This document shows, one piece after another, positions 133-27,412 of a DNA stretch of 32,752 bases. The notes below the pieces were generated by a model. The model was not told the origin of the DNA. It worked only from the letters and a program-made list of their open reading frames with translations, and did no database searches. Numbering within the stretch: the first letter of the stretch is position 1; each line of letters opens with the position of its first letter. The stretch spans positions 4,418 to 37,169 of the forward strand of contig NZ_HE998012.1 in the NCBI RefSeq assembly GCF_000312585.1, written 5' to 3'. This DNA comes from Bartonella queenslandensis AUST/NH15. GTDB lineage: Bacteria; Pseudomonadota; Alphaproteobacteria; Rhizobiales; Rhizobiaceae. The position numbers and the translations under genes were made by a program.

Positions 133-450
133 TTACCCGTTACCCGTGAATAACAGCGTAGCAAGTTGGGTTGCCGAGCCAGCAATGATAACACCGACCG
201 CCCATCGTACAAATGTATCTTTTTCGATGTAGCGTCCTGCATAACCAATTGCTAGACATAAAAGTATAACAGCGGCAGCGATAGGAATAATATGATCAAT
301 AAGGTCTTTTTGGAGGCCCTCTAAAGCTTTTTTAGCAGTATCTAGTTTTTGTGCATACGCAGGATGCGTTATAATAAAGGCACTTATAGCTGCAAAAAGT
401 ATGGTAATTTTGTTGTTACTTTTTGATTGGAGATTAATGAATTTTTGCAT
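133..450 (-). CDS. trwL: TrwL/VirB2-type pilin subunit (fifth copy in transcription order)
   Basis: Predicted pilin subunit of a Trw (VirB-like) type IV secretion system, 105 aa. It has an N-terminal signal peptide (hydrophobic stretch about residues 16-31, likely cleavage after AYA). A mature hydrophobic domain follows, with a core IIPIAAAVILLCLAIGYAG and then a GRYIEKDTFVRWAVGV segment shared almost unchanged with the neighbouring copies. The 106 bases upstream of the signal-peptide cleavage point and the C-terminal tail (LFTGNG) vary between copies. A good ribosome binding site (AAGAGGG) lies just before the ATG. It is the most downstream of five tandem copies, and further trw genes are expected to the left of the window. 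Multiple TrwL copies are a known feature of Bartonella trw loci, where they are thought to give variant surface pili for erythrocyte adhesion. The copy number label here is mine. Confidence 0.9.
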   Translation of the reverse strand: MQKFINLQSKSNNKITILFAAISAFIITHPAYAQKLDTAKKALEGLQKDLIDHIIPIAAAVILLCLAIGYAGRYIEKDTFVRWAVGVIIAGSATQLATLLFTGNG

Positions 451-588
451 GTTTCCCTCTTATTAATACTCTAAATAACATTTTATATATCTTTAATACA
501 AATGAAACCGCCATTGTATTATTTTCAATTGGTTAATAACTTTACAATTTATAAAAACATTTTGTATTATATTTTGCCATAGTCAAAT

Positions 589-906
589 TTAACCAGCTGC
601 ACCTGTAAATAACAGCTTAGCAAGTTGGGTCGCAGAGCCAGCAATGATAACACCAATAGCCCACCGTACAAATGTATCCTTTTCGATGTAGCGTCCCGCA
701 TAACCAATTGCTAAACACAAAAGTATAACGGCGGCAGCGATAGGAATAATATGATCAATAAGGTCTTTTTGGAGGCCCTCTAAAGCTGTCTTAGCATTTT
801 TTAGCTGTGCATATGCAGGATGTGTTACAAAAAATACAGCTACAGCTGTAAAAATTGCAGCGATCTTGTTATTATTTTTTGATTGGATATTAACTGATCT
901 TTCCAT
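589..906 (-). CDS. trwL: TrwL/VirB2-type pilin subunit (fourth copy)
   Basis: Pilin paralogue of 105 aa, closest to the copy at 133-450: both share the stretch ALEGLQKDLIDHIIPIAAAV and an LLFTG tail. The first 35 residues differ (Met-Glu-Arg-Ser start, signal peptide ending AYAQ). The mature domain has two hydrophobic segments separated by the conserved YIEKDTFVRW turn, typical of VirB2-like pilins. It is separated from its neighbours by 138-210 bases of AT-rich spacer, so the repeat unit is gene plus spacer of roughly 450 bp. The ribosome binding site (GAAAGAAA) is weaker than that of the last copy, which may give unequal expression among paralogues. The family call is firm; the individual role of this copy is unknown. 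Confidence 0.9.
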   Translation of the reverse strand: MERSVNIQSKNNNKIAAIFTAVAVFFVTHPAYAQLKNAKTALEGLQKDLIDHIIPIAAAVILLCLAIGYAGRYIEKDTFVRWAIGVIIAGSATQLAKLLFTGAAG

Positions 907-1044
907 ATTTTTCTTTCATCAAGATTGTAAATAACGTTTCATATACCTTGAATATAAGTGAAATCACCATTTGTTTATCTATAATTGATTAGAGAAGTCT
1001 CACCTTTAAAAAATACTGTGTATTACATGTCGTCGTGGTTAAGT

Positions 1045-1359
1045 TTAACCACCTGCACCTTTGAATAACACTGCAACAAGTTGGGTTGCAGAGCCAGCGA
1101 TGATAACACCAACTGCTCATCGTACAAATTCAATGTAGCGTCCCGCATAACCAATTGCTAAGCACAAAAGTATGACGGCAGCAGCGACAGGAATAATGTG
1201 TGCAATGAGGTCATCCTGTAAACTCTTTAGCGCTTTGTTAGCATTTGTTAAAGTTTGTTGGGCATATACAGAAGTACTCATAAAAAATGCAGCTATAGTT
1301 GCAGCAATTGTGATAATTTTACCATTATCGTTCAATTGGAAATTGATTAATTTTCTCAT
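1045..1359 (-). pseudogene. trwL: TrwL pilin copy, truncated (third copy)
   Basis: Third trwL paralogue, interrupted. Read on the minus strand from ATG at 1359 (aligned to the MQKFIN/MRKLIN start of its neighbours), it is normal through the signal peptide and hydrophobic core up to GRYIE. Two lesions follow: an in-frame 9-base loss removes the Lys-Asp-Thr of the conserved IEKDTFVR motif, and the codon for the invariant Trp is TGA (complement of 1117-1119). The remaining 24 codons are still open in the same frame, encode a recognisable AVGVIIAGSATQL tail, and end at TAA (1045-1047). The product would stop at about 80 residues without its second hydrophobic segment. The intact remainder suggests a recent loss, or a donor for gene conversion into other copies. 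Confidence 0.85.
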
Positions 1360-1501
1360 ATTACTCAGCCTCATCAGACCATATTTGACGCAAATAGCTT
1401 TTTTGCAAAATAAGAAGCAATTTTATTGATATGGAATGAACATATTGAAATCTAAACTTTTTTCATGAAAATAACACTTCATCGTGCAAAAATTTTATCA
1501 G

Positions 1502-1813
1502 TTACTTTGTAAATAATAAAGCGGCAAGCTCACTTGCTGAACCAGCGATAACAACACCTATTGCCCACCGAACGAATGTATCTTTCTCGATGTAGCGCCC
1601 TGCATAACCGATTGCCAAGCACAAAAGTATGACAGCAGCAGCGATAGGGATAAGTCCAATCAATTCCGTCTTGAACTTATTTAAAACATCTTTTGCATTT
1701 TTTAATTCTTGTGCTTGAGCACACACAGAGTGTGTTAGAAAAAAAGCAGTCGTTATTGTAACGATTGAAGTGCTTTTATTAACCATTGTTTGAAGAATAT
1801 TTAATTGTTTCAT
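1502..1813 (-). CDS. trwL: TrwL/VirB2-type pilin subunit (second copy)
   Basis: Pilin paralogue of 103 aa. It belongs with the copy at 1930-2247 as a second subgroup: both start with a NILQT motif after a basic N-terminus, carry AQAQ(E/G)LK after the signal peptide and KF(K/Q)TEL before the hydrophobic core, and lack the DLIDH motif of the downstream copies. The core from IPIAAAVILLCLAIGYAG to YIEKDTFVRWA matches the rest of the family. The C-terminus ends in LLFTK. The ATG at 1813 is preceded by a GGATAA ribosome binding site. The predicted product is exported and inserted in the inner membrane as a pilin precursor, then assembled into the Trw surface filament. Confidence 0.9.
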   Translation of the reverse strand: MKQLNILQTMVNKSTSIVTITTAFFLTHSVCAQAQELKNAKDVLNKFKTELIGLIPIAAAVILLCLAIGYAGRYIEKDTFVRWAIGVVIAGSASELAALLFTK

Positions 1814-1929
1814 ATTGTTTATCCAAATTTAAGTTACAGGTTGTATAAATACTCTCTCTTTTTCGATATGATTTTTATCGATATGCATAATCTTTAGATT
1901 TTAGGTTCTTCTTTGAATAAAAGAACATT

Positions 1930-2247
1930 TTATGGTTTTGTGAATAACATATTTGCAAGTTCAGCTGCTGAACCGGCGATAATGACACCTACCGCCCACC
2001 GAACGAATGTATCTTTCTCGATGTAGCGTCCTGCATAACCGATTGCTAAGCACAAAAGTATAACAGCAGCAGCGATAGGAATAATCGTTTTTAATTCTGT
2101 CTGGAATTTTGTTAAAACTTCTCCTGCTTTTTTCAAACCTTGTGCTTGGGCCCATGCAGAGTGGGTCATAAAAAATAGAGTTAAACCTGCAGAGATTTGA
2201 GTAGTTTTATTACGAATTATTGTTTGAAGAATATTTGATCGTTTCAT
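1930..2247 (-). CDS. trwL: TrwL/VirB2-type pilin subunit (first copy)
   Basis: First trwL paralogue of the array, 105 aa from the ATG at 2247. I chose this start rather than the longer frame because AGGA lies 8 bases before it and because MKRSNILQT aligns with the start of the next copy. It has a signal peptide, a hydrophobic core, and the family motif GRYIEKDTFVRWAVGVIIAG, ending LFTKP. The end of the preceding gene (stop at 2210) runs about 38 bases into this gene in another frame, so translation of the two may be coupled. Its N-terminal region is most like that of the copy at 1502-1813. As the first copy after the probable promoter, it may be the most highly expressed. Confidence 0.88.
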   Translation of the reverse strand: MKRSNILQTIIRNKTTQISAGLTLFFMTHSAWAQAQGLKKAGEVLTKFQTELKTIIPIAAAVILLCLAIGYAGRYIEKDTFVRWAVGVIIAGSAAELANMLFTKP

Positions 2248-2509
2248 GTTTTTCATCCTGATTAAGACTAAAACTTCCACAAATAACCCCTCTTTCATAA
2301 AGAAATTTAAAGAGATATTTCGGATCAGCCCAAGTTCTTAATTTTCCTCTTTGTGTAAGTAGTGTATATTTATCTGGTTTTCCGGTGATTGGATCATCAG
2401 CAACAAACGTAAAATACCACTCTCTTTCAGAGAGCATAATAATTGTAACCTCACGTGCTGCTTTCTGATTAAACGCTATATCAACGCTGTTCTGTTCTAT
2501 CATTTTCAT
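2210..2509 (-). CDS. Small plasmid-type protein in the korA-like position of the trw operon
   Basis: A 99-aa protein between trwN and the trwL array. Its central part reads like small plasmid-borne proteins with a YTLLTQRGKLRTWADP segment followed by KYLFKFLYERGV. I see no obvious helix-turn-helix, signal peptide or membrane segment. In trw loci a repressor gene (korA) lies between trwN and trwL, so position suggests a regulatory or accessory role, but the sequence does not prove it. The ATG at 2509 has a GAGGG ribosome binding site 8 bases upstream. The last 12 or so residues (after GSFSLNQDE) overlap the first trwL gene and are low-complexity (SSNNNS), so the C-terminus may have been extended by loss of an earlier stop. 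Confidence 0.6.
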   Translation of the reverse strand: MKMIEQNSVDIAFNQKAAREVTIIMLSEREWYFTFVADDPITGKPDKYTLLTQRGKLRTWADPKYLFKFLYERGVICGSFSLNQDEKHETIKYSSNNNS

Positions 2510-8233: not shown

Positions 8234-10677
8234 ATGCACCGAAATTCTTCTCCTTATGATTCATTGGAAGCACGAGATTCTCAAGGTTTTCGGCTTGTTG
8301 AGATGTTTTTACGGCAGATTGGCGTCTTTATTGGGCTTGGGCTTTTGGGCTTTATTATTTTTTGTGTGTTTGCTTTGGCGACGTGGAATGTTGCTGATCC
8401 CTCTTTAACCCATGCAAGTACAAATGAGGTTACAAACCTTATGGGGTGGTTGGGGGCAATTTTTTCAGATTTTATGATGCAGTTTTTTGGCTTGGCAAGT
8501 CTTGCTGTTTTGTTGCCACCATTATTTTGGTCTTTTCTCTTGTTGGCACAAAAGAATATCTACAATTTGACTTTGCGCTTTTTTTTGTGGGTGGTATCAA
8601 CAATTTGTTTTTTAATGGCTTTTGCCCTGATGACGCCTGTTGCTTCTTTCACTTATTGGCCATTGCCCATGGGGTTTGGAGGGGTTTTAGGAGATAAAAT
8701 TTTAAGGATTGCTTCTTCAATTTTTCCTCTTTTGCTTTCTCCATTTTATACGGTGCTCTTCAGTGTTGTTTTTATCCTTTTAGGTTTTTTCATTGCTGCT
8801 TTTGCTGGCAATGTGATATGGCGGCGTCGAGAAAAGAAAAGAAAAGAAAAAAGAATTCCAAAAAACGAAATCATTGATCCGGTCTTTGAGATGGAAGAAG
8901 ATGGGGAAGATGCTGCTGAGGATGATCGTGAGAAGCATGGTGTTTTTGCGACAACTTTTGGTGCTCTTTTACATCTTTTTTATTTTTTACAAGCGCGTTT
9001 TTTCGTTTTTTCTGTTTCAAAAGGCCTTCTCAGGGGAAGGGGCAAGGCAAGTCATTTGATCGGATTGAACCAACTTTTTTGGATGAAAAAGAAAAGTGTG
9101 AGGAAAATAAAAATAAAGCCTATGCTTCTTCTTCTGTTAAAAGTCTAAAGTCTTTAACAGCTTTTTCAAATGGTGGTTTTGTTCTTCCACTTTTAGATTA
9201 TCTAGCAGTTCCACCACCATCTGTGCGGGATGCAAAACTTTCTCCAGCTGCTTTAAAAGCAAATTCTCATGAACTTGAAGGTGTTTTATTAGATTTTGGG
9301 GTCAAAGGAAAAATTATAGATGCTTGTCCTGGACCTGTGGTCACTTTATATGAATTCGAACCGGCTGCTGGCATTAAATCATCTCGTATCATTAGTCTGG
9401 CAGATGATATTGCGCGTTCGATGCGTGCGATTTCTGCTCGTGTTGCTGTGGTTCCTGGTCGCAATGTGATTGGAATAGAATTGCCCAATGCAAAGCGTGA
9501 GATGGTTTATTTAAGGGAGATTGTGCAAGCACAGGAATTTGTTGAAAGCAAAGCAAAATTAGGGCTTGCCTTGGGCAAGACAATCGGGGGGGAAGCTGTT
9601 ATTGCAGATTTAGCAAAAATGCCGCATCTTTTGGTTGCTGGTACAACAGGTTCGGGAAAGTCTGTTGCTATCAATACAATGATTTTATCATTGCTTTATC
9701 GTATGACGCCTGAACAATGTCGTCTCATTATGGTCGATCCGAAAATGCTTGAACTTTCGGTTTATGACGGCATTCCTCATTTGTTAACACCTGTGGTGAC
9801 GGATCCTAAAAAAGCAGTGACTGCGCTTAAATGGGCTGTTCGTGAAATGGAAGAGCGCTACAGTAAAATGTCAAAACTTGGCGTTCGCAATATCGATGGA
9901 TTTAATGCACGTCTCAAGGAATCAAAAGGTCAAGGAGAGACAATGGTGCGTACGGTTCAAGTGGGCTTTGATCATGATACGGGTGAGCCTCTTTATGAAA
10001 CGGAAACACTTGATTTTAGTCCTATGCCTTATATCGTTGTCATTATTGATGAAATGGCTGATTTGATGATGGTCGCTGGTAAGGATATCGAAGGTGCAGT
10101 TCAGCGTTTAGCACAAATGGCACGTGCCGCCGGTATCCATGTGATTATGGCGACACAGCGTCCTTCTGTTGATGTTATTACTGGAACGATTAAGGCCAAT
10201 TTTCCTACACGCATTTCTTTTTCCGTTAGTTCAAAAATCGATAGCCGAACAATTCTGGGCGAACAGGGAGCCGAGCAATTATTGGGACAAGGGGATATGC
10301 TCTTCATGATGGGAGGAGGACGTATTCAGCGTGTGCATGGACCTTTTGTTGCGGATGATGAAGTGGAGCAGGTTGTTGCACATCTCAAAGCGCAAGCACG
10401 ACCGGATTATTTGGAAACAATTACCCAAGAAGTTGAAGAAGATGGTGCTGATGTTTCTTCATCTTCTCCTTCAGCAGATGATCCCTATAGTCAAGCTGTT
10501 GCTATTGTTCTTCGTGATCGTAAGGCTTCAACCTCTTATATTCAACGCCGTTTAGGTATTGGGTATAACCGTGCTGCAACATTGATTGAAAGGATGGAAG
10601 AAGAAGGTATCATTAGTCCAGCAAATCACGCAGGAAAACGAGAAATTTTAGTCCCTGCCGAAGAAGAACGCTTTTGA
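8234..10677 (+). CDS. ftsK: DNA translocase FtsK, split by a -1 frameshift
   Basis: FtsK is the septal DNA pump that clears chromosome ends during division and activates XerCD. Two overlapping frames together give about 814 residues, a normal FtsK length for this group. The first frame (8234-9148) has four membrane helices (about residues 29-51, 78-99, 109-130 and 160-185) and an acidic linker. The second (to 10677) has the motor domain with Walker A GTTGSGKS (about residue 470), Walker [13 protein letters not shown], and the C-terminal gamma winged helix ([22 protein letters not shown]). The frames meet near 8998-9004: reading ARF in frame one and then [14 protein letters not shown] in frame -1 restores the protein. 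Without a shift, the product is a 304-aa membrane fragment with a spurious tail. Since FtsK is normally essential and the motor half is fully intact, I infer that it is expressed. A sequencing error or a recent deletion is also possible. Confidence 0.85.
8831..8850 (+). repeat. Pentanucleotide repeat (GAAAA)4 inside ftsK
   Basis: Four perfect tandem GAAAA units in the basic linker just after the fourth membrane helix, encoding a Lys/Arg/Glu run. A change of one unit would shift the frame. The acidic linker that follows is in frame with the membrane domain at the present length. Confidence 0.8.
8998..9004 (+). promoter_or_regulatory. Candidate -1 slippery heptamer in ftsK (T TTT TTC)
   Basis: In the upstream ftsK frame this reads CG(T TTT TTC), the X XXY YYZ layout of a -1 frameshift site. 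Slipping back one base makes the next codon CGT, which is exactly the frame of the motor domain. Loss of one T from an ancestral T7 tract would give the same picture. Confidence 0.5.
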
Positions 10678-16746: not shown

Positions 16747-18729
16747 ATGAAAGCAGAAAAAGCAGATGCTGTTTTCGTTTTGGAAAATATTGTGCGCAAA
16801 TTTCCTGCGGGTGAAACATTTGTCACTGTTTTGAAAGAGATTAATCTAACCATTAAACGTGGTGAAATGGTGGCGATTGTTGGGGCTTCCGGTTCTGGAA
16901 AGTCCACATTGATGAATATTTTAGGCTGTCTTGATCGACCAAGTTCTGGTCGTTATTGGATTTCAGGAAAAGAAGTAGCTTCTCTTTCTGCTGATGAATT
17001 ATCCGCTTTGCGGCGCAATCATTTTGGATTTATTTTTCAACGCTATCACTTGTTGAATGAATTAACGGCACTTGGCAATGTTGAAATTCCAGCTATTTAT
17101 GCAGGCTATGCACCGGATGTGAGAAAAAAACGTGCTCAGGATTTGTTAACACGCCTAGGTATGGGAGAGAGAGTTAATCATCGGCCTAATCAGCTTTCAG
17201 GGGGGCAACAACAACGGGTGTCTATTGCGCGAGCATTGATGAATAATGCGGAGGTTATTCTTGCCGATGAGCCAACTGGCGCTTTAGATAAAAACAGTGG
17301 TCAAGAAGTGTTGCGTATTTTGGATGAGCTTCATCAAGAAGGGCGCACCATTATTATCGTAACACATGATATGCAGGTGGCTAAAAGAGCAGATCGTATT
17401 ATCGAAATCAGTGATGGGGAAATTGTTGCTGATAATATATCAAAGGGTAAAAAAACAAAAACGAGAGTTCAATCCCCTCAAGAGCAACAGAATCTGAAAG
17501 ATCAAAAAACACTGGGGTATTTTCGTTCTTTTGTTGAACGTTTTCGTGAAACGTTTGTCATGGCTTTGTTGGCGATGAATGCACATCGGATGCGGACTTT
17601 TTTAACAATGCTTGGGGTAATTATCGGTATTGGAGCGATTATTGCTATGGTGGCTTTGGGAAATGGAACGCGGGAAAAAATACTAGAAAATTTTAAAAGC
17701 TTGGGATCCAATACTTTGACAATCTTCCCTGGGAAAAGTTTTTCTGATCCACAAGCAGAGAAGATAACGAGTTTGGTGGAAGCGGATGCAGAAGCCCTTT
17801 CTGATCTGCCCTATATTTCTGGTGTAACACCTCAGATTTCAGCAAATTCTACGATTCGTTTTGGTTCCGTTGAAGTTAATGCAGTGATTACTGGGGTGGG
17901 AGAACAATTTTTCCAAACACAAGGGCTCAAGGCTGTGAAAGGGCAGTTGTTTGATCAAAAAAGTGTGCGTGAGCGTGCTGTTGATCTCGTTATTGAAAAG
18001 GAAGCTGTTGCTGTTCTTTTTCCTCATAGCCATGAGAGCCCACTGGGAAAAGTGGTGCATGTGGGAAAAGTTCCTGCTCGTATCGTTGGGGTGGTTGATC
18101 CACAAAATAATAGAGGTAGCTCAAATACGTTGCAGATTTATTTGCCTTATACAACTGTGCAAACACGTTTTCTTGGCACAACACAAGTTCGGGCTATTAC
18201 CGTGAAGATTGCTGATCATATTGATTCACATTTAGCGGAGAAGATGGTGAAACGTTTTCTCATTATGCGCCATGGTGAGGAAGATTTTTTCATTCGAAAT
18301 TCCGAATTTTTCCGTGAACGTATTATGGAGAGCACACATATTTTAACGCTTTTAGTGTCTTCAATTGCGGCGATTTCACTCATTGTAGGGGGGATTGGGG
18401 TAATGAATATTATGTTGGTTACTGTTTCTGAGCGGATCAATGAAATTGGGGTGCGTATGGCTGTTGGTGCACGGCAGAGTGATATTCTCCAACAATTTCT
18501 CATTGAAGCAATTTTAGTATGTATCATTGGAGGCGGTTTAGGAATCCTCTTGGGATTTTCTATTGGGGGCTTGTTTTGGCTCTTTAATGCGCCTATTCAT
18601 CTCATTTATACACTGGATTCAATTATTATATCTCTTACTTTTTCCACTCTCATTGGAATATGTTTTGGCTTTTCGCCAGCGCGACAAGCTTCACGGCTTG
18701 ATCCTGTTGTTGCGCTTTCGCGCGATTAA
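16747..18729 (+). CDS. macB: MacB-like ABC exporter (ATPase fused to permease)
   Basis: A 660-aa MacB-type transporter with the ATPase first and the permease second. Walker A is GASGSGKST (about residues 42-50), the signature [15 protein letters not shown], Walker [13 protein letters not shown], and the switch His is in IIVTHD. After a linker comes one transmembrane helix ([20 protein letters not shown], about residues 287-306), a large periplasmic domain, and three C-terminal helices beginning near [23 protein letters not shown]-like sequence, with the [17 protein letters not shown] coupling motif. MacB uses ATP to drive substrates from the periplasm through the MacA/TolC conduit (macrolides, peptides, siderophores or heme-like compounds in various bacteria). 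Last gene of the three-gene operon; followed by a long spacer. Confidence 0.92.
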
Positions 18730-19002: not shown

Positions 19003-19205
19003 ATTTGAAACTTTTCATAAGAGGCATTTTTTGTTCTTTCTTTATAGTCTTTATTCACACCCACACCCCGTTGTAACGGGAAAGCAAGTGATTTTGATTG
19101 TTTTATAGAGACTTAAAATGAGAGAGCCTAAGATATTCAAAACTCTTATTTTAAGATGCAGAACACTTATCTTGATCAATCAATGCATTGTCTTATGGTA
19201 AAAAT
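19003..19205. repeat. Dispersed repeat family A, copy 2 (left of the type ISP gene)
   Basis: Matches the copy at 25447-25690 over blocks such as TCATAAGAGGC, AAGCAAGTGATTTTGATTG (compare AAGCAAATGGTTGTGATTT), AACTCTTATTTTAAG and GAACACTTATCTT followed by ATCAATCAAT or TTAATCAAT. The two copies lie in the same orientation on either side of the type ISP gene. Confidence 0.55.
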
Positions 19206-19683: not shown

Positions 19684-20103
19684 TTATTGAAAAAGTCTAA
19701 TCTCATATCCAGCAGGTGTGAGGTGGAATAAGAGAGCATCGTAATACCACATTGCAGTGAGGCTACCGAAACAAATAAAAGGGGTTATAATGAGTATGGG
19801 TATGTGTAGTTTGTGTGGCATTTCCCCTCCTAGGTAGACTCCAATGCTGAAAACAATGAATACTAAAGCCGAGCCACCCGCTATAACACTTAATAAGCGT
19901 ATAACCATTCCACGAATGGCCAAAAGAAAAAGAAAGGTTTCAAAAATAAATATTTTGAATATTACGACGAATATTTTTCGTATGATAAAAAATATCACCC
20001 GTATTATGGTGAATATTATACGCATTATTGTTCGTAGAATGCGATGTTTTTTGTGTAGAATTTCTTCCTTAGTATCTTGTGTGTTTTCAGGTATCGTGTC
20101 CAT
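19684..20103 (-). CDS. Small membrane protein with heptad-repeat basic/hydrophobic helix
   Basis: A 139-aa protein of no family I recognise. After a polar N-terminus (TIPENTQDTKEE) there is an unusual stretch at about residues 22-50 of near-perfect seven-residue units (IMRIIFT, IIRVIFF, IIRKIFV, VIFKIFI) that puts a Lys or Arg once per unit in an Ile/Phe-rich helix. Two or three ordinary membrane helices follow (SVIAGGSALVFIVFSIGVYL; IPILIITPFICFGSLTAMW). I use the ATG at 20103 because GAGGGGGG lies 4 bases before it; a further in-frame ATG at 20118 overlaps that site. It stands alone, with a strong terminator after it. Amphipathic basic helices of this kind can bind acidic membranes or act as transmembrane oligomerisation segments; the function is unknown. 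Confidence 0.65.
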   Translation of the reverse strand: MDTIPENTQDTKEEILHKKHRILRTIMRIIFTIIRVIFFIIRKIFVVIFKIFIFETFLFLLAIRGMVIRLLSVIAGGSALVFIVFSIGVYLGGEMPHKLHIPILIITPFICFGSLTAMWYYDALLFHLTPAGYEIRLFQ

Positions 20104-20410
20104 TTCCCCCCCTCTCATTTCTTAAGTTAAATCCTAAAACTATCGTGCATTTTATTTTGTTTTTTTTACAAAATGCAAAAAAATATTTTTAACATCATCA
20201 CACACTCTTTTTATTTCCATAAGGGGGTAAAGATCATGAAATACATCATATGATTGGGGAAGAGGCAAAGAGATTTTTTCATATCATGTCGCCAAGGATA
20301 GAAAGAACGTCTTAAAATTAAGATATTTTAAATCTTTTGGGTAGAACAAGAGGCATTAATAAATAGGCCTAGATTCAATAATTGAAGATGTTTTTAATAG
20401 GAAGAAAGCA

Positions 20411-23400
20411 ATGACGCTACAATCGCTTTTACAGATTTATCGTGATGAAGCGCGTACCGAAAGGGATAAAGGGACCTATTTTGAGCGTTTGGCTCTTGCT
20501 TATCTGACACATGATCCTCTCCAGTCTCTGTGTTATGAAAAGGTTCAAACCTTTAAAGATTGGGCACATGAAAATGGCTGGGATGGTCGTGATATTGGCA
20601 TTGATCTTGTGGCAAAACTTCGTCATGAAAAGGGGTTTGCTGCAATCCAATGTAAATTTTATGATGCAGAATATCGGATTAAAAAAGCAGATATTGATAG
20701 TTTTATTTCAGCATCAGGTAAAGAACCGTTCAAACGGCGCGTTATTATAGATAGTACCATCAACGCTTGGACTGATAATGCGGAAACAATGATACGGGGG
20801 CAAGATATTCCTGTTATACGGATTGGTCTTTCTGATTTGCAAGAAAGTCCGATTCGTTGGGAGATTTTTGCAGCTAAAGACAAAATTGTGCTGGAGGATA
20901 AAAAGAAACTCCGTTCTCATCAGGCGGAGGCGTTGCGTTTTGTGCGTGCGGGGCTTGAGCAAGCAGATCGGGGCAAGCTTATTATGGCTTGTGGTACGGG
21001 TAAGACATTTACCAGTCTTAAAATTGCTGAGAATTTGGCTGGTGAAGGGAAGTTTGTTTTATTTCTTGTTCCCTCTTTGGCTTTGATGTCACAGACGGTG
21101 CGTGAATGGACAACGGATGTAGAAATCGGATTACGCTCTTTTGCGGTATGTTCCGATACACAAGTGGGGAAGCGTCGTAAAAATAGTGATGATGTTGCTG
21201 AAATTGATGTGTTTGATCTTGCTTTTCCGGCGACAACCGATGCAGCAAAATTGGCAGAACAAGCGGGTGATGGTGTCTTAGATAAGATGAGCGTTGTGTT
21301 TGCAACTTATCAATCCATTCAGGTGATTGCGGATGCTCAGAAAAATTATGGTTTGCCAACATTTGATCTTATCATTTGTGATGAAGCGCATCGTACAACA
21401 GGGGCAACGCTGGTGGGCGAGGATGAATCCAATTTTGTGAAGGTGCATTCCAATGATGTTATTCGTGCTAAAAAGCGCCTTTATATGACAGCGACACCCC
21501 GTGTTTTTGGTGATAACGCGAAAAGTCGCGCGAATGAAGTTGATGCTGTTCTTGCTTCAATGGATGATGAAAAACTCTTTGGCAAAACACTTTTTTATCG
21601 AGGCTTTTCATGGGCTGTACGAAATAATCTTTTAACGGACTATAAGGTTATTGTCTTAGCAATGGACGAAAAATTGGTCAGTTCCGCTGTTCAAAAACGC
21701 CTTAGTGATAGCGATTCAGAGCTTATTCTTGATGACGCAACAAAGATTATCGGTTGTTATAAGGCGTTGACAAAAAAAGATATAAAAGCTGATGTTGGGG
21801 TTGATTCATATCCTATGCATCGTGCTTTAGCGTTTTGTAAAACTATTGAAAGTTCTAAACTGGTTCGTCGTGAATTTTCGGCGGTTGTCGAAGAATATCT
21901 TGAGTATACTCAAGGGAATGCGGAAAACGAGCCATTTTTGAAATGTGCAGTTGAACATGTTGATGGCAAGTTTAATGCGAAGGACCGTAGTGCACTGCTT
22001 GATTGGTTGAAAGCAGAGAGCGGGGATGGTGTTTGTCGTATTTTGACTAATGCTCGTTGTTTGTCTGAGGGTGTAGATGTTCCGGCTCTTGATGCCATCA
22101 TGTTTTTAAATCCACGTAAGAGTCAGATTGATGTTGTGCAAGCGGTTGGGCGGGTGATGCGTCGCAGTGAGGGCAAAAAGATGGGGTATGTCATTTTGCC
22201 AATAGGTATTCCCTCTGGGATTCCAGTAGAACAGGCTTTGAACAACAATGATAAATATCGGGTTGTTTGGCAAATTTTAAATGCTTTGCGTGCGCATGAT
22301 GACCGTTTTGATGCAACGATTAATAAGGCGTCGTTGGGGCAAGATATCAGCAATGTGATTGAGATCATTGGGGTTACACAGAGCACTGAGTTACAGGCTG
22401 TTACAGCTGTTGTCGATAATCTTCCTGTTCACTCACAACCTGCACGATCAAATGTTGGTACAGCGGAGCGTGATTTTCTTTTTACAGATGGACAAGAGGA
22501 GCTTTCTTTCCCTGTGGATGAATTTTCGCGTGCAATTCTGGCAAAGATTGTCAAAAAATGTGGGACGCGTGATTATTGGGAAGATTGGGCGAGTAATATT
22601 GCAGAGATTGCTAAAAACCATATCACGCGTTTAACAGGTATTCTTGCGGCACCAAATACTAAGGCACGTCAAGCTTTTGATCAGTTTTTAGCAGAACTGC
22701 GTGATGACTTAAACGATACGATTAGAGAGGTTGATGCGATTGAGATGTTGGCACAACATATCATCACGCGTCCTGTCTTTCAGGTGTTGTTTGAAGGGTA
22801 TCAATTTACACGTGAGAATCCTGTCTCGCGTGCTATGCAACGTATGCTTGATGTGCTTGATAAGGAAAATCTTGATAAGGAATCTAAAGATCTTGAGAAA
22901 TTTTATGCGAGTGTAAAATTACGCGCCAGTGGCATTACAGATCCAAAAGCAAAGCAGAAATTAATTGTAGAGCTTTACGATAAATTTTTCCGTTATGCTT
23001 TTCCACGCACGGTCGAAAAATTGGGAATTGTTTATACGCCCGTTGAGGTGGTGGATTTTATTGTGAACTCTGTCAATGATGTTTTGCAAAATGAATTTGG
23101 ACAAACGCTTGGCTCATCGGGTGTTCACATTATGGATCCCTTTACCGGAACGGGAACTTTTATCACGCGGCTTTTACAATCAGGGTTGATCACATCAGAG
23201 GAGATGAAACACAAATTTTGTCATGAAATCCATGCCAATGAAATCGTGCTTTTAGCTTATTATATCGCAGCTATTAATATTGAGACAACCTATCATGGTC
23301 TGATGGGGGGCGATTATGTTCCCTTTGAGGGAATTTGTCTGACCGATACATTTCAGCTTTATGAGCAAGATAAAGATCTGATTAGCGATTTGCTGATGGC

Positions 23401-25366
23401 CAATAGCACCCGCAGGTCACGCCAGAAGGAATTGGATATTCGTGTTATTGTTGGTAATCCCCCTTATTCTTCTGGGCAAAAAAGCGAAAACGACAATGCG
23501 CAGAATATTAGCTATCCTAAATTGGATCGTCGCATCCGTGAAACTTATGCCGCTCAATCCAAAGCGAGCAATGTTAATGGACTTTACGACAGTTATATCC
23601 GTGCCATTCGCTGGGCAAGTGATCGCATAAAAGACTGTGGTGTTATTGGGTTTGTGACAAATGCAGGTTTTATCAATGGATATTCTATGAATGGTTTACG
23701 AAAAGAATTGAATAAAGAATTTTCGAGCATTTATGTTCTCAACTTGCGCGGAGATATTCGTAAAAACATGATGAGTAAAGGACGTGCTCAAGAAGGGCAA
23801 AATGTTTTTGGAAGTGGAAGTATGACAGGAATTTCTGTGACAATTTTTGTCAAAAATCCAAATGTCACGGGGCATTGCAAAATTTATTATCATGATATTG
23901 GTGATAATCTCACAACAAAAGAGAAACTATCTGAACTTAAGCGATTAGGCAGTTTTGACGGTATCAAGCGTGAAAAAGATTGGCAGATGATTACACCAGA
24001 TGAGCATGGTGATTGGCTGAAACAGCGCAACAGTGATTTTGAAAAGTTTCTAGCCTTAGGTGATAAGAAGGGCGGTGATAAAAAGTTCTTTGAAACTTTT
24101 TCTCGTGGTATACAAACTGGTCGTGATGCTTGGGCATATAATTCAAGCCGTGAAGCTTTAGCAAAAAATATGAATGATATGATTGCTTTCTATAACAGTG
24201 AAGTCGAGCGTTTTAATGTTATACATTTACATTCTGACCGCAAGGCGCGTGCAAATGCTGTAAATGATTTTGTCAACGCGGATACTAGAAAGATTAGTTG
24301 GAGTGGTAGTCTGAAAGAAGAGTTGATAAGAGGAAAGTTTTTTGAATTTGAAAATGATTGCTTAGTTCAGAGTTTATACCGTCCTTTTATGCGACAGTGG
24401 CTCTATTATAATCGTACTTTCAATGAGAGAGTATATCAAATGCCGCGTATCTTTCCACTGGGGAAAACAGTTGAAAATAGGGTGATACAAATTACCGGCA
24501 TTGGAGCAAGCAGTGGTTTTTCTGTTCTGATGACTAAGGATTTGCCTAACCTTCATACAATGGATACGGGTCAATGTTTTCCACGGTATCTTTATGAGGA
24601 TTCTGAGTTCTTAAAAAATAAGAAGGAAAATCAGGTTCATTTGTTTGCAAATTTTGCAGAGGAAAACAAAAAAGCCGGTTTACAGCGGCGTGATGCACTC
24701 ACGGATGAAGGATTAGCTTATTTTAAGGCTGCCTATCCTAGCGAAGTGATTACAAAAGATGATTTGTTTTATTATATTTATGGGATCTTGCATTCTGAGG
24801 ATTATCGTGCGTGTTATGCGCATAATCTTTCTAAAGAATTACCACGAATTCCAACGGTTAAAAGAGCAGAAGATTTTTGGGCTTTTGTGACAGCAGGGCG
24901 TGAATTGGGGCATTTGCATATGAATTATGAAGAGGTTGAGCCCTATCCCGTTACCTATAAACAGGGTGATCCTAGCACTTGGATGATTTCTGATGAGAAG
25001 AGTTTTTACCGGGTTAAAGCGATGAAATTTGCAGGTAAGCGCGGTGCTATTGACAAAAGCACTGTGGTTTATAATGCGCATATTACGATGCAGAATATTC
25101 CTCTTGAAGCTTATGAGTATGTGGTGAATGGTAGACCTGCTCTTGAATGGGTTATGGAGCGGCAGGTGGTCAAAACGGATAAAGCGAGTGGACTTGTTAA
25201 TGATGCCAATTGCTATGCTGTTGAGACAGTGGGTAATCCAGCCTATCTTCTGGAATTGTTTCAAAGGGTTATTACGGTAAGTTTAGAAACGATGAAAATT
25301 ATTCGCAGTCTTCCAAAATTGGATGTGAGGGAAACTGAAAAGGTTAAATTATCTATTGTGCGGTAA
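20411..25366 (+). CDS. Type ISP-like single-chain restriction-modification enzyme
   Basis: A 1651-aa protein with the complete order of a type ISP (LlaGI/LlaBIII-like) enzyme. An Mrr-like PD-(D/E)xK nuclease comes first (D65 in GRDIGIDLVAKL, Q80 and K82 in AIQCKFY). A superfamily 2 helicase/translocase follows, with Walker A MACGTGKT (195-199), DEAH in LIICDEAHRT (about 325), YMTATPR, and motif VI QAVGRVMRRSEG. Next is a linker, then an N6-adenine methyltransferase: YTPVEVVDFI, AdoMet-binding DPFTGTGTF (about 908) and catalytic NPPY (about 1016). The C-terminal 600 residues should hold the target recognition domain. One polypeptide thus methylates the host site and, at unmethylated sites, translocates and cleaves. 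All motifs look intact. AGGAAG lies 6 bases before the ATG. There is no separate hsdS/M/R gene. It is flanked by family A repeats and long spacers, consistent with accessory DNA. Confidence 0.9.
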   Translation: MTLQSLLQIYRDEARTERDKGTYFERLALAYLTHDPLQSLCYEKVQTFKDWAHENGWDGRDIGIDLVAKLRHEKGFAAIQCKFYDAEYRIKKADIDSFISASGKEPFKRRVIIDSTINAWTDNAETMIRGQDIPVIRIGLSDLQESPIRWEIFAAKDKIVLEDKKKLRSHQAEALRFVRAGLEQADRGKLIMACGTGKTFTSLKIAENLAGEGKFVLFLVPSLALMSQTVREWTTDVEIGLRSFAVCSDTQVGKRRKNSDDVAEIDVFDLAFPATTDAAKLAEQAGDGVLDKMSVVFATYQSIQVIADAQKNYGLPTFDLIICDEAHRTTGATLVGEDESNFVKVHSNDVIRAKKRLYMTATPRVFGDNAKSRANEVDAVLASMDDEKLFGKTLFYRGFSWAVRNNLLTDYKVIVLAMDEKLVSSAVQKRLSDSDSELILDDATKIIGCYKALTKKDIKADVGVDSYPMHRALAFCKTIESSKLVRREFSAVVEEYLEYTQGNAENEPFLKCAVEHVDGKFNAKDRSALLDWLKAESGDGVCRILTNARCLSEGVDVPALDAIMFLNPRKSQIDVVQAVGRVMRRSEGKKMGYVILPIGIPSGIPVEQALNNNDKYRVVWQILNALRAHDDRFDATINKASLGQDISNVIEIIGVTQSTELQAVTAVVDNLPVHSQPARSNVGTAERDFLFTDGQEELSFPVDEFSRAILAKIVKKCGTRDYWEDWASNIAEIAKNHITRLTGILAAPNTKARQAFDQFLAELRDDLNDTIREVDAIEMLAQHIITRPVFQVLFEGYQFTRENPVSRAMQRMLDVLDKENLDKESKDLEKFYASVKLRASGITDPKAKQKLIVELYDKFFRYAFPRTVEKLGIVYTPVEVVDFIVNSVNDVLQNEFGQTLGSSGVHIMDPFTGTGTFITRLLQSGLITSEEMKHKFCHEIHANEIVLLAYYIAAINIETTYHGLMGGDYVPFEGICLTDTFQLYEQDKDLISDLLMANSTRRSRQKELDIRVIVGNPPYSSGQKSENDNAQNISYPKLDRRIRETYAAQSKASNVNGLYDSYIRAIRWASDRIKDCGVIGFVTNAGFINGYSMNGLRKELNKEFSSIYVLNLRGDIRKNMMSKGRAQEGQNVFGSGSMTGISVTIFVKNPNVTGHCKIYYHDIGDNLTTKEKLSELKRLGSFDGIKREKDWQMITPDEHGDWLKQRNSDFEKFLALGDKKGGDKKFFETFSRGIQTGRDAWAYNSSREALAKNMNDMIAFYNSEVERFNVIHLHSDRKARANAVNDFVNADTRKISWSGSLKEELIRGKFFEFENDCLVQSLYRPFMRQWLYYNRTFNERVYQMPRIFPLGKTVENRVIQITGIGASSGFSVLMTKDLPNLHTMDTGQCFPRYLYEDSEFLKNKKENQVHLFANFAEENKKAGLQRRDALTDEGLAYFKAAYPSEVITKDDLFYYIYGILHSEDYRACYAHNLSKELPRIPTVKRAEDFWAFVTAGRELGHLHMNYEEVEPYPVTYKQGDPSTWMISDEKSFYRVKAMKFAGKRGAIDKSTVVYNAHITMQNIPLEAYEYVVNGRPALEWVMERQVVKTDKASGLVNDANCYAVETVGNPAYLLELFQRVITVSLETMKIIRSLPKLDVRETEKVKLSIVR

Positions 25367-25446: not shown

Positions 25447-25690
25447 GCACTTGAGACGGTCCATAACTTGAGACGGTCCATAAGAGGCGTGCCTTTCTTG
25501 TATAGTTTTACTCCATACCGCTCCTTTCCCTTGTGATGTGCAAGCAAATGGTTGTGATTTATTGAACAGAGAACAGATTTGAAAAGAGAAAATCTTACTC
25601 TATTTGAAACTCTTATTTTAAGTTGAAGAACACTTATCTTTATTAATCAATATGTTGATGGTAATAAAACACCTGAGGCAGTAAGGCAGC
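25447..25690. repeat. Dispersed repeat family A, copy 3 (right of the type ISP gene)
   Basis: Begins with two tandem units of ACTTGAGACGGTCCATA, then AAGAGGCGTGCC, CAAGCAAATGGTTGTGATTT, AACTCTTATTTTAAG, GAACACTTATCTT and ATTAATCAATATGTTGAT. The last block is identical to one in copy 1 (4959-4976), and the middle blocks match copy 2. Confidence 0.55.
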
Positions 25691-26746: not shown

Positions 26747-27412
26747 TCAGAAGGCGGTTCTGATATAGACGTGGAGCGTTTTAATATATTGGAAGATAAG
26801 AATGCGGATTTGCTTGATTTGTTGTGCTGTGCTTTCAGCTTTGCTCTTTTTAACAGGATAGGCAATGAAATGGATATCAGGCATGAGATATTTAAGTTCA
26901 CGCATCGAGCGCCATATGTGGTAATCATGAGTGACGATATAAAGGGTTTTATAGTGGTGCTTTTTGATCCAAGCTGCACTTTCTTTGGCATTTCCTTTGG
27001 TGTTAATCGCTTGATGCCCAATGTCAATGCAACAGGAGATAAGTCGTGGGCTAATATGCATGTTCTGCATAAAACTCTTTAGATTGGTTGAGGTGTTTAC
27101 ACCACTGATGAGGAGTCGTGAACCAACCCCTTTTTGTAAGAGATGAAGCCCTGTCTCTATTCGGTTTTCTCCGCCCGTGAGCACGATGATGGCATCGGCT
27201 TTGGGGAGAGGCTGTGGGGGGGCAAGTCGTTCGGTTTTTTCAGAAAAAATGATAAATCCACCCCAAAAAATAAAAACAATGACTGCAAGAGTAAGAGTTG
27301 TGGGTGGAAAATAGCGAAATAAGCAGCGCACAGACCAACTGTAGTGGTGCTGTTTTGGAACAGGACGCTCTAAATCATTTTGTGTCAATGGGTTGGAAGT
27401 GTTGTGAGTCAT
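26747..27412 (-). CDS. YdcF-family (DUF218) membrane-anchored protein
   Basis: A 221-aa protein of the YdcF/SanA/ElyC family, which has links to envelope and peptidoglycan homeostasis, though the biochemical activity is unsettled. One N-terminal membrane helix (LTLAVIVFIFWGGFIIF, about residues 40-56) is followed by the DUF218 domain: ADAIIVLTGGENRIETGLHLL at the start, RLLISGVN, then NTKGNAKESAAWIKKH and LYIVTHDYHIWRSMRELK. The conserved Glu, Asn and His residues of the family are in these motifs. The ATG at 27412 is 3 bases after the ftsX stop, so it is the third gene of the ftsE-ftsX-ydcF operon, a frequent arrangement in Rhizobiales. The spacer after it has no further operon gene. Confidence 0.85.
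   Translation of the reverse strand: MTHNTSNPLTQNDLERPVPKQHHYSWSVRCLFRYFPPTTLTLAVIVFIFWGGFIIFSEKTERLAPPQPLPKADAIIVLTGGENRIETGLHLLQKGVGSRLLISGVNTSTNLKSFMQNMHISPRLISCCIDIGHQAINTKGNAKESAAWIKKHHYKTLYIVTHDYHIWRSMRELKYLMPDIHFIAYPVKKSKAESTAQQIKQIRILIFQYIKTLHVYIRTAF

What the first reader, a model, noticed from the sequence alone, without database searches (positions are those of the whole stretch)
20411..25366. Intact single-chain type ISP-like restriction enzyme as an isolated defence gene
Nuclease, translocase, methylase and a large C-terminal specificity region are all present with intact motifs in one 1651-aa chain. It stands alone in a repeat-rich spacer of a host-restricted pathogen with a small genome, where large defence genes are uncommon. 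It should leave a one-strand N6-adenine methylation mark of a new specificity.
Basis: partly seen in the sequence, partly recalled or inferred. Interest (0 to 1): 0.5.

Follow-up and report, generated by a model that had tools for sequence, protein, structure and literature searches.

The report
Intact single-chain restriction enzyme in Bartonella
The gene is an ordinary, apparently working single-protein DNA-cutting and DNA-marking enzyme of a known type; the surprise is that it is not a lone defence gene, because related bacteria can carry many such enzymes whose recognition parts differ.

Summary
In detail: 20411-25366 (+) is one intact 1651-aa type ISP restriction-modification enzyme that aligns end to end with LlaBIII, with nuclease, ATPase, coupler, N6-adenine methylase and specificity domains and core motifs intact. 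The genus is Bartonella. The gene does stand alone between macAB and ftsXE, but it is a clade-wide resident: at least 23 of 71 genus genomes hold a full-length copy of this lineage, under purifying selection (Ka/Ks 0.07-0.28). One very close genome lacks it, with a single copy of the 51-nt repeat that flanks the gene left at the junction. Such genes are not rare here: 57 of 71 Bartonella genomes carry the domain, and one genome has 21 full-length copies with 21 different base-contact signatures. Ten of its paralogues were examined widely; all ten have an integrase upstream, on islands of about 12.5-15 kb that form a lineage separate from the window gene. There, recognition segments are uncoupled from enzyme bodies. 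At the window locus, 20 orthologues show 19 signatures. The enzyme is a new member of a known kind; "new specificity" is plausible but untested. The multi-copy, recombining ISP repertoire is the part worth following.

The parts
20411..25366 (+). type ISP restriction-modification enzyme gene, 1651 aa
20510..20881 (+). Mrr-family nuclease domain (Mrr_cat_2, aa 34-157); D65 lines up with position 78 of LlaBIII (count along the alignment); D78 is catalytic in LlaGI; Q80-C-K82 follows
   Evidence: D78 in LlaGI from PMC4872093
20903..22165 (+). superfamily 2 helicase-like ATPase/translocase (ResIII 165-364, Helicase_C 468-585; GTGKT, DEAH, QAVGRVMRR)
22574..22948 (+). type ISP coupler domain (aa 722-846)
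22961..23719 (+). N6-adenine methyltransferase domain (aa 851-1103; DPFTGTGTF and NPPY)
23747..23824 (+). recognition loop III of the methylase (aa 1113-1138; I at LlaGI position 1118, N at 1131), the segment that differs in type between orthologues
24086..25258 (+). type ISP C-terminal specificity domain (aa 1226-1616): variable up to about 1450, conserved guide after
19134..19184 (+). left copy of the 51-nt direct repeat flanking the gene; end of left-flank match in the gene-less genome G031
25601..25651 (+). right copy of the 51-nt direct repeat (88% identical)
16747..18729 (+). left conserved neighbour: MacB-like ABC transporter
26747..27412 (-). right conserved neighbour, 221-aa protein of no NCBIfam match, before ftsX/ftsE

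Best explanation
The gene encodes a complete, probably active type ISP restriction-modification enzyme kept as a chromosomal gene in a clade of Bartonella. Inferred working by homology: one chain binds a short asymmetric site through the MTase-TRD clamp; if the site is unmethylated it hydrolyses ATP, leaves the site and translocates downstream; two enzymes converging from head-to-head sites cut the DNA between them. Host sites are protected by N6-adenine methylation of one strand. Shown here: architecture, motif integrity, purifying selection, a shared locus across many species, absence in one very close genome with a single repeat copy at the junction, and faster change of the recognition region than of the body. 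Inferred only: activity, target, and a role as barrier to phages and to DNA arriving from other Bartonella. A tentative target frame from the published partial code is T-N-G-S-S-C (A opposite the T methylated, nothing read at -1), low confidence (~0.2).
For: End-to-end match to LlaBIII, 1234 bits; all Pfam domains over cut-off. Across 92 full-length Bartonella homologues: D65 92/92, Q80 and K82 90/92, GTGKT, DEAH and NPPY 92/92, GTGTF 91/92. Ka/Ks medians 0.07-0.28 over 171 orthologue pairs. Synteny: 14 of 14 named Bartonella loci with an orthologue (12 intact, 2 broken) have orf221-FtsX-FtsE-Acs downstream, 13 of 14 have MacB upstream. Mean pairwise aa identity of 20 orthologues per 50-residue block: 0.81-0.97 before residue 1050 (except 0.73 at 651-700), 0.68-0.80 over 1051-1450, 0.84-0.93 after. 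Mechanism of the prototypes: PMC4666363 passages, PMC4872093 sections 15, 16, 18. Target frame: I1118/N1131, N1056/N1058, R1327, H1368.
Against: No expression, methylation or restriction data. 6 genomes or loci have broken or remnant copies (G068/L088, G020/L093, G037, G026, G024, L097) and G031, G001, G064 and G032 have none at the locus, so it is dispensable. The target code rests on two structures and 11 enzymes; E1326, suggested in the paper for A:T at +5, fits the frame poorly.
Confidence: 0.85

Rival explanations
1. The enzyme works mainly as a one-strand methylase (epigenetic mark or gene regulation) and restriction is silent or weak in the cell.
For: Methylase motifs are kept, and the parts are separable in the prototype: nuclease-dead LlaGI still translocates (PMC4872093, passage).
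Against: Nuclease D65-Q80-K82 and the ATPase motifs are kept in all orthologues aligned; only 2 of 92 homologues, both paralogues of G066 (B. tribocorum), lack K82. Nuclease Ka/Ks 0.215 and ATPase 0.136 argue that these parts are still selected.
Confidence: 0.12
2. It is a decaying relic that happens to be open in this strain.
For: Broken or missing in several relatives, including the very close genome G031.
Against: Full-length in at least 23 of 71 genus genomes, low Ka/Ks.
Confidence: 0.05
3. It is recently imported cargo of the mobile ISP islands that fill many Bartonella genomes.
For: The genus has many island copies with integrase and YfjI genes. In the tree of residues 1101-1440, 4 of 22 orthologues fall on a side with 20 paralogues, and the loop III letters of those 4 are of the paralogue type.
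Against: No integrase, toprim, YfjI or solenoid match in the window. In the body tree the window lineage nests among other alphaproteobacterial enzymes (97*), apart from the island clade (100*).
Confidence: 0.04

Closest known systems
LlaBIII (PDB 4xqk), Lactococcus type ISP enzyme, target TnAGCC
   Same: Whole length, all domains and motifs (1234 bits). Same I/N pair at LlaGI positions 1118/1131 and N1056/N1058, so probably no base read at -1.
   Different: Contact residues at 1226, 1286, 1326 and 1368 differ, so the target should differ.
LlaGI (PDB 5ffj), target CTnGAYG
   Same: Same architecture; H1368 and E1326 shared.
   Different: Lacks Q1118/K1131, N1228 and R1286, which read -1, +4 and +6 in LlaGI.
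Type ISP enzymes of other Alphaproteobacteria (for example Mesorhizobium sp. Z1-4, Nitratireductor sp. B36, Paracoccus aurantiacus)
   Same: 68-69% identical in the best segment; they share a supported group with the window lineage in the body tree (97*, 13 non-Bartonella rows).
   Different: Targets not known to me; neighbourhoods not annotated here beyond a search for island partners.
Bartonella ISP paralogues on integrase islands, probably overlapping the 'fha-repeat' of B. grahamii (PMC2697382, passages seen)
   Same: Same enzyme type, 56-63% identical.
   Different: Mostly on integrase islands in many copies; separate lineage. The passages I saw mention integrase, phage genes and an Sfi18-like gene with the repeat; a find for 'restriction', 'methylase' and 'methyltransferase' in that paper gave only laboratory digests.
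7lo5, a 1029-aa adenine-specific methyltransferase entry
   Same: Methylase and TRD half (468 bits, query 752-1635).
   Different: No counterpart of the Mrr nuclease and ATPase half in the match.

Membership tests
Type ISP restriction-modification enzymes | Single polypeptide in order Mrr nuclease - SF2 ATPase - coupler - N6A MTase - TRD | tested here: met
Type ISP restriction-modification enzymes | Catalytic residues of nuclease (D78 of LlaGI), ATPase (Walker A, DEAH) and MTase (NPPY) | tested here: met
Type ISP restriction-modification enzymes | Type_ISP_C specificity domain with core, jaw and guide | tested here: met
   PF18135 354.5 bits; C-terminal part conserved, core variable; jaw not checked separately
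Type ISP restriction-modification enzymes | N6-adenine methylation of one strand of an asymmetric target | not testable with these tools
   no methylome available
Type ISP restriction-modification enzymes | ATP-dependent translocation and cleavage between head-to-head sites | not testable with these tools
   prototype behaviour from PMC4666363
Type IIG (the label of the best PADLOC model, PDLC03597) | Cleavage near the site without a translocating ATPase domain (definition recalled) | tested here: not met
   complete SF2 ATPase present; the PADLOC model is itself 1646 aa long, so its name looks like a labelling matter
Bartonella integrase-YfjI-ISP-solenoid island | integrase, YfjI/DUF3987 and beta-solenoid partners beside the ISP gene | tested here: not met
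   no integrase hit in the window; nothing credible for YfjI, toprim or solenoid

The most novel reading that the evidence does not exclude
Many Bartonella, above all rodent-associated ones, keep a repertoire of single-chain restriction enzymes whose recognition segments are reassorted by recombination. One genome holds 21 full-length copies with 21 different contact signatures, largely on ~14-kb islands that match the reported 14-kb load of the Bartonella gene transfer agent. The window gene is the fixed chromosomal counterpart whose specificity turns over between species. Together they would write a combinatorial methylation barcode that decides which strains can exchange DNA by gene transfer agent, with the islands themselves spreading as satellite-like cargo.
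Probability: 0.25. Interest if true: 0.78.

Novelty: new member of a known kind. Interest (0 to 1): 0.48.

Why it matters
The enzyme alone adds one more type ISP protein with an unknown target. The wider picture matters more: the Type_ISP_C domain is sparse in the order (11 of 149 genomes other than the own one over the cut-off, at most 2 matches each) yet one Bartonella genome has 21 full-length copies. If the copies are active, the genus offers a natural library for decoding how single-chain restriction enzymes read DNA, since copies with identical nuclease and motor segments differ in recognition. It would also bear on what limits gene-transfer-agent exchange in Bartonella, which a review says could be limited by restriction-modification barriers (PMC6899734, passage seen).

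Tried and rejected
Wholesale swapping of the TRD between window-lineage orthologues and paralogues: the TRD tree did not show the orthologues as one clade, but holding them together was not rejected (AU p=0.555 for 1101-1440, p=0.609 for 1226-1440). Only the segment 1090-1165 with loop III rejects one clade (p=1.6e-7), and it was picked after seeing the loops. A nearest-neighbour scan found windows nearer to a paralogue in 11 of 22 orthologues within residues 1041-1460 and, before 1041, in one divergent orthologue (L171) only, but margins were small. In orthologues the TRD Ks (0.57) is only a little above that of other segments (0.38-0.54) while Ka is raised (0.165 against 0.036-0.11), so most orthologue TRD change looks like amino-acid divergence, not import.

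Attachment sites of the islands: no common direct repeat found at their ends; 1 tRNA in 19 wide loci scanned. Island partners outside Bartonella: YfjI and solenoid in 0 of 55 non-Bartonella loci, toprim-like 3, integrase-like 4; many of these loci are short. Promoter-like sites in the spacer region: 20 against a shuffle mean of 22.9; terminator-like 10 against 5.7, sd 2.4. Papers: no held paper has both 'Bartonella' and 'type ISP' (0 papers). The listings (titles and starts of abstracts; several capped) showed none on Bartonella ISP enzymes; the same genes under another name could have been missed. Structure prediction was not run, as the match to solved structures was already end to end. Rows dropped: 6 loci without a full-length open frame were left out of the 92-sequence set (L137, L154, L172, L173, L174, L176); the trees used 55 of the 92, that used 35 of the 92 plus 37 non-Bartonella rows.

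Full report
WHAT IS THERE. The open frame 20411-25366 (+) is real and intact: 1651 aa, ATG to stop. Pfam places, in order, an Mrr-family nuclease (34-157), ResIII and Helicase_C (165-364, 468-585), the ISP coupler (722-846), an N6-adenine methylase (851-1103) and the Type_ISP_C specificity domain (1226-1616, 354.5 bits). A phmmer search aligns residues 15-1641 to LlaBIII (4xqk, 1234 bits) and most of 157-1641 to LlaGI (5ffj). D65 lines up with position 78, whose aspartate is catalytic in LlaGI (PMC4872093, passage); Walker A, DEAH, methylase motif I and NPPY are intact. The best PADLOC model is labelled type IIG, but it is 1646 aa long and matches end to end; by domain content the protein is type ISP.

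WHERE IT SITS. Titles of the nearest relatives show the genus is Bartonella; the window is a stretch of a 2.38-Mb draft in 598 contigs. The gene lies between MacB (ends 18729) and a 221-aa gene that precedes ftsX-ftsE-acs. The downstream neighbours are found in 14 of 14 named Bartonella loci holding an orthologue (12 intact, 2 broken) and MacB in 13 of 14. Of 71 genus genomes, 23 have a full-length copy of this lineage (the listing was cut, so a lower bound). For 19 of these 23 at least one of the window's neighbour genes lies in the fetched flank (for G028 through its named locus L064; in G027 MacB is on the other side). In G040, G029, G012 and G047 the gene is elsewhere, far from ftsX. Broken or remnant copies were seen in G068 (named locus L088), G020 (L093), G037, G026, G024 and L097.

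ABSENCE NEXT DOOR. G031 is very close by these neighbour genes (MacB 98%, FtsX 97%) but lacks the gene. Its spacer matches the window's left flank up to 19184 and the right flank from 25531. A single copy of the 51-nt repeat is left at the junction. The alignment reads like the left flank up to shortly before the repeat and like the right flank from there on. Deletion between the direct repeats explains this best, given that the gene is widespread at this site; insertion is not strictly excluded. G001, G064 and G032 also have macB and orf221 without the gene between them.

SELECTION. Over 171 pairs of 19 orthologues, median Ka/Ks is 0.07-0.28 in every segment. The TRD has the highest Ka (0.165; loops II-III 0.11; nuclease, ATPase, coupler, methylase and guide 0.036-0.081) at only slightly higher Ks. 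Mean pairwise amino-acid identity of 20 orthologues falls from about 0.9 to 0.68-0.80 over residues 1051-1450 and rises again after.

RECOGNITION RESIDUES. Using the recognition elements and the partial code of PMC4872093 (sections 15, 16 and 18 read), I took 12 contact positions. The window signature is SNNINQGGERYH; 20 orthologues give 19 different signatures. Some differ at one position only and may share a target, so this is an upper bound on the number of specificities. Loop III, which reads position -1 in LlaGI, is LlaBIII-like (I1118, N1131) in the window gene and of other types in L023, L024, L025 and L170. A tree of residues 1090-1165 rejects one clade of orthologues (AU p=1.6e-7, segment chosen post hoc), whereas residues 1226-1440 do not (p=0.609). 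The tentative target T-N-G-S-S-C follows from I1118/N1131 (no -1), H1368 (+3 G as in LlaGI), N1056/N1058 (GC or CG step at +4/+5) and R1327 (+6 C). It is a guess to be tested.

NOT A RARE KIND OF GENE HERE. The own genome has a second full-length copy on contig C47 and fragments on C35, C40, C11 and C7. Across the genus 57 of 71 genomes carry Type_ISP_C over cut-off; matches, fragments included, reach 21 in G027, 16 in G034, 14 in G066, 13 in G055 and 12 in G028. As a control, of 150 genomes of the order 12 are over cut-off including the own one, and none of the other 11 has more than 2 matches; 3 of 14 named control genomes also carry it. G027 has 21 full-length open copies, one orthologue and 20 paralogues; G034, in contrast, has 2 full-length copies and many fragments. 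Of 92 full-length Bartonella copies aligned, 90 keep K82 and all keep D65, GTGKT, DEAH and NPPY.

ISLANDS. In 20 loci of 20 kb around paralogues of G066 and G027, an integrase-like ORF occurs in 19, YfjI/DUF3987 in 19, beta-solenoid ORFs in 19 and a toprim primase in 7 (Pfam). For 18 of the 20 the script paired an upstream integrase with a full-length ISP frame; in 17 of these the span from integrase to last solenoid ORF is 12.5-14.8 kb (some cut by the locus end), while L195 has no solenoid ORF. L192 lacks the integrase and YfjI. Several loci also hold phage terminase, portal, capsid or tail-collar genes. The B. tribocorum plasmid pBT01 carries toprim, YfjI and ISP in a row. In a separate set of 39 flanks (38 paralogues and one orthologue), YfjI-type ORFs were found in 32 and solenoid-type in 34. 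The B. [quoted passage not shown] I think this overlaps these islands. The match of island length to the 14-kb gene-transfer-agent load (same paper; PMC6899734 passages) is suggestive only. The window has no integrase, toprim, YfjI or solenoid match, and its gene belongs to a different lineage, grouped with other alphaproteobacterial enzymes (quick tree without the mixture model, with a long-branch warning elsewhere in it).

REASSORTMENT. In G027, copies L119 and L124 are 100% identical in DNA over residues 1-640 and 700-850 but 77.7% in the TRD; L120 and L126 are 94.9% in the TRD but 64% and 77% in nuclease and ATPase. Across the 20 paralogues, ATPase identity goes with nuclease (Mantel r 0.72) and coupler (0.74), less with methylase (0.49), weakly with loop III (0.29, p 0.006) and guide (0.19, p 0.03), and not detectably with the TRD (0.10, p 0.12). 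Among orthologues ATPase against TRD is 0.52 (p 0.003) and against loop III 0.22 (p 0.15). All 21 G027 copies have different contact signatures; 11 full-length copies of G066 have 10. So specificity is largely uncoupled from the body in the paralogues, and at the window locus clearly only for loop III.

CONCLUSION. Working like a type ISP enzyme: very likely. Membership in the family: every sequence feature tested is met; the biochemical features could not be tested. The window gene is ordinary as an enzyme. The repertoire around it is the interesting part and needs methylomes.

Noticed in passing
8234-9148 and 9079-10677 (+): FtsK is split over two overlapping frames: the 4TM part in the first, the alpha/motor/gamma parts in the second. 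A frameshift, a sequence error or an unusual ftsK.
   Followed up: no
133-2509 (-): Row of small ORFs of about 85-122 aa at the window start; the one at 1930-2298 is a TrbC/VirB2 pilin (PF04956), which looks like a TrwL-like pilin array (name recalled).
   Followed up: partly
L148 (G000 contig C47): Second full-length ISP gene of the own genome, 61-62% identical to the window gene, on a contig with ParA-like and resolvase-like ORFs (read by eye), perhaps a plasmid or integrated element.
   Followed up: partly
L109-L128 (G027): 20 full-length ISP paralogues in one genome besides the orthologue L026, with TRDs uncoupled from bodies.
   Followed up: yes
L131 and L139 (G066, B. tribocorum): Two paralogues have RCQ instead of QCK at the nuclease site, so they may be methylase/translocase only.
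   Followed up: no
L190-L209: ISP islands lie near terminase, portal, capsid and tail-collar genes, with several islands within a short distance in G066 and G027.
   Followed up: partly
L177-L181 (G058, G059, G063, G044, G004): Five further Bartonella ISP genes form a third lineage in the body tree (100*), apart from the window lineage and the island paralogues; their place next to a long branch is unsure.
   Followed up: no
19684-20118 (-): 144-aa ORF without Pfam match beside the gene; related ORFs occur near the orthologue in several loci and near two paralogue copies, so it may belong to a multi-copy Bartonella family.
   Followed up: partly
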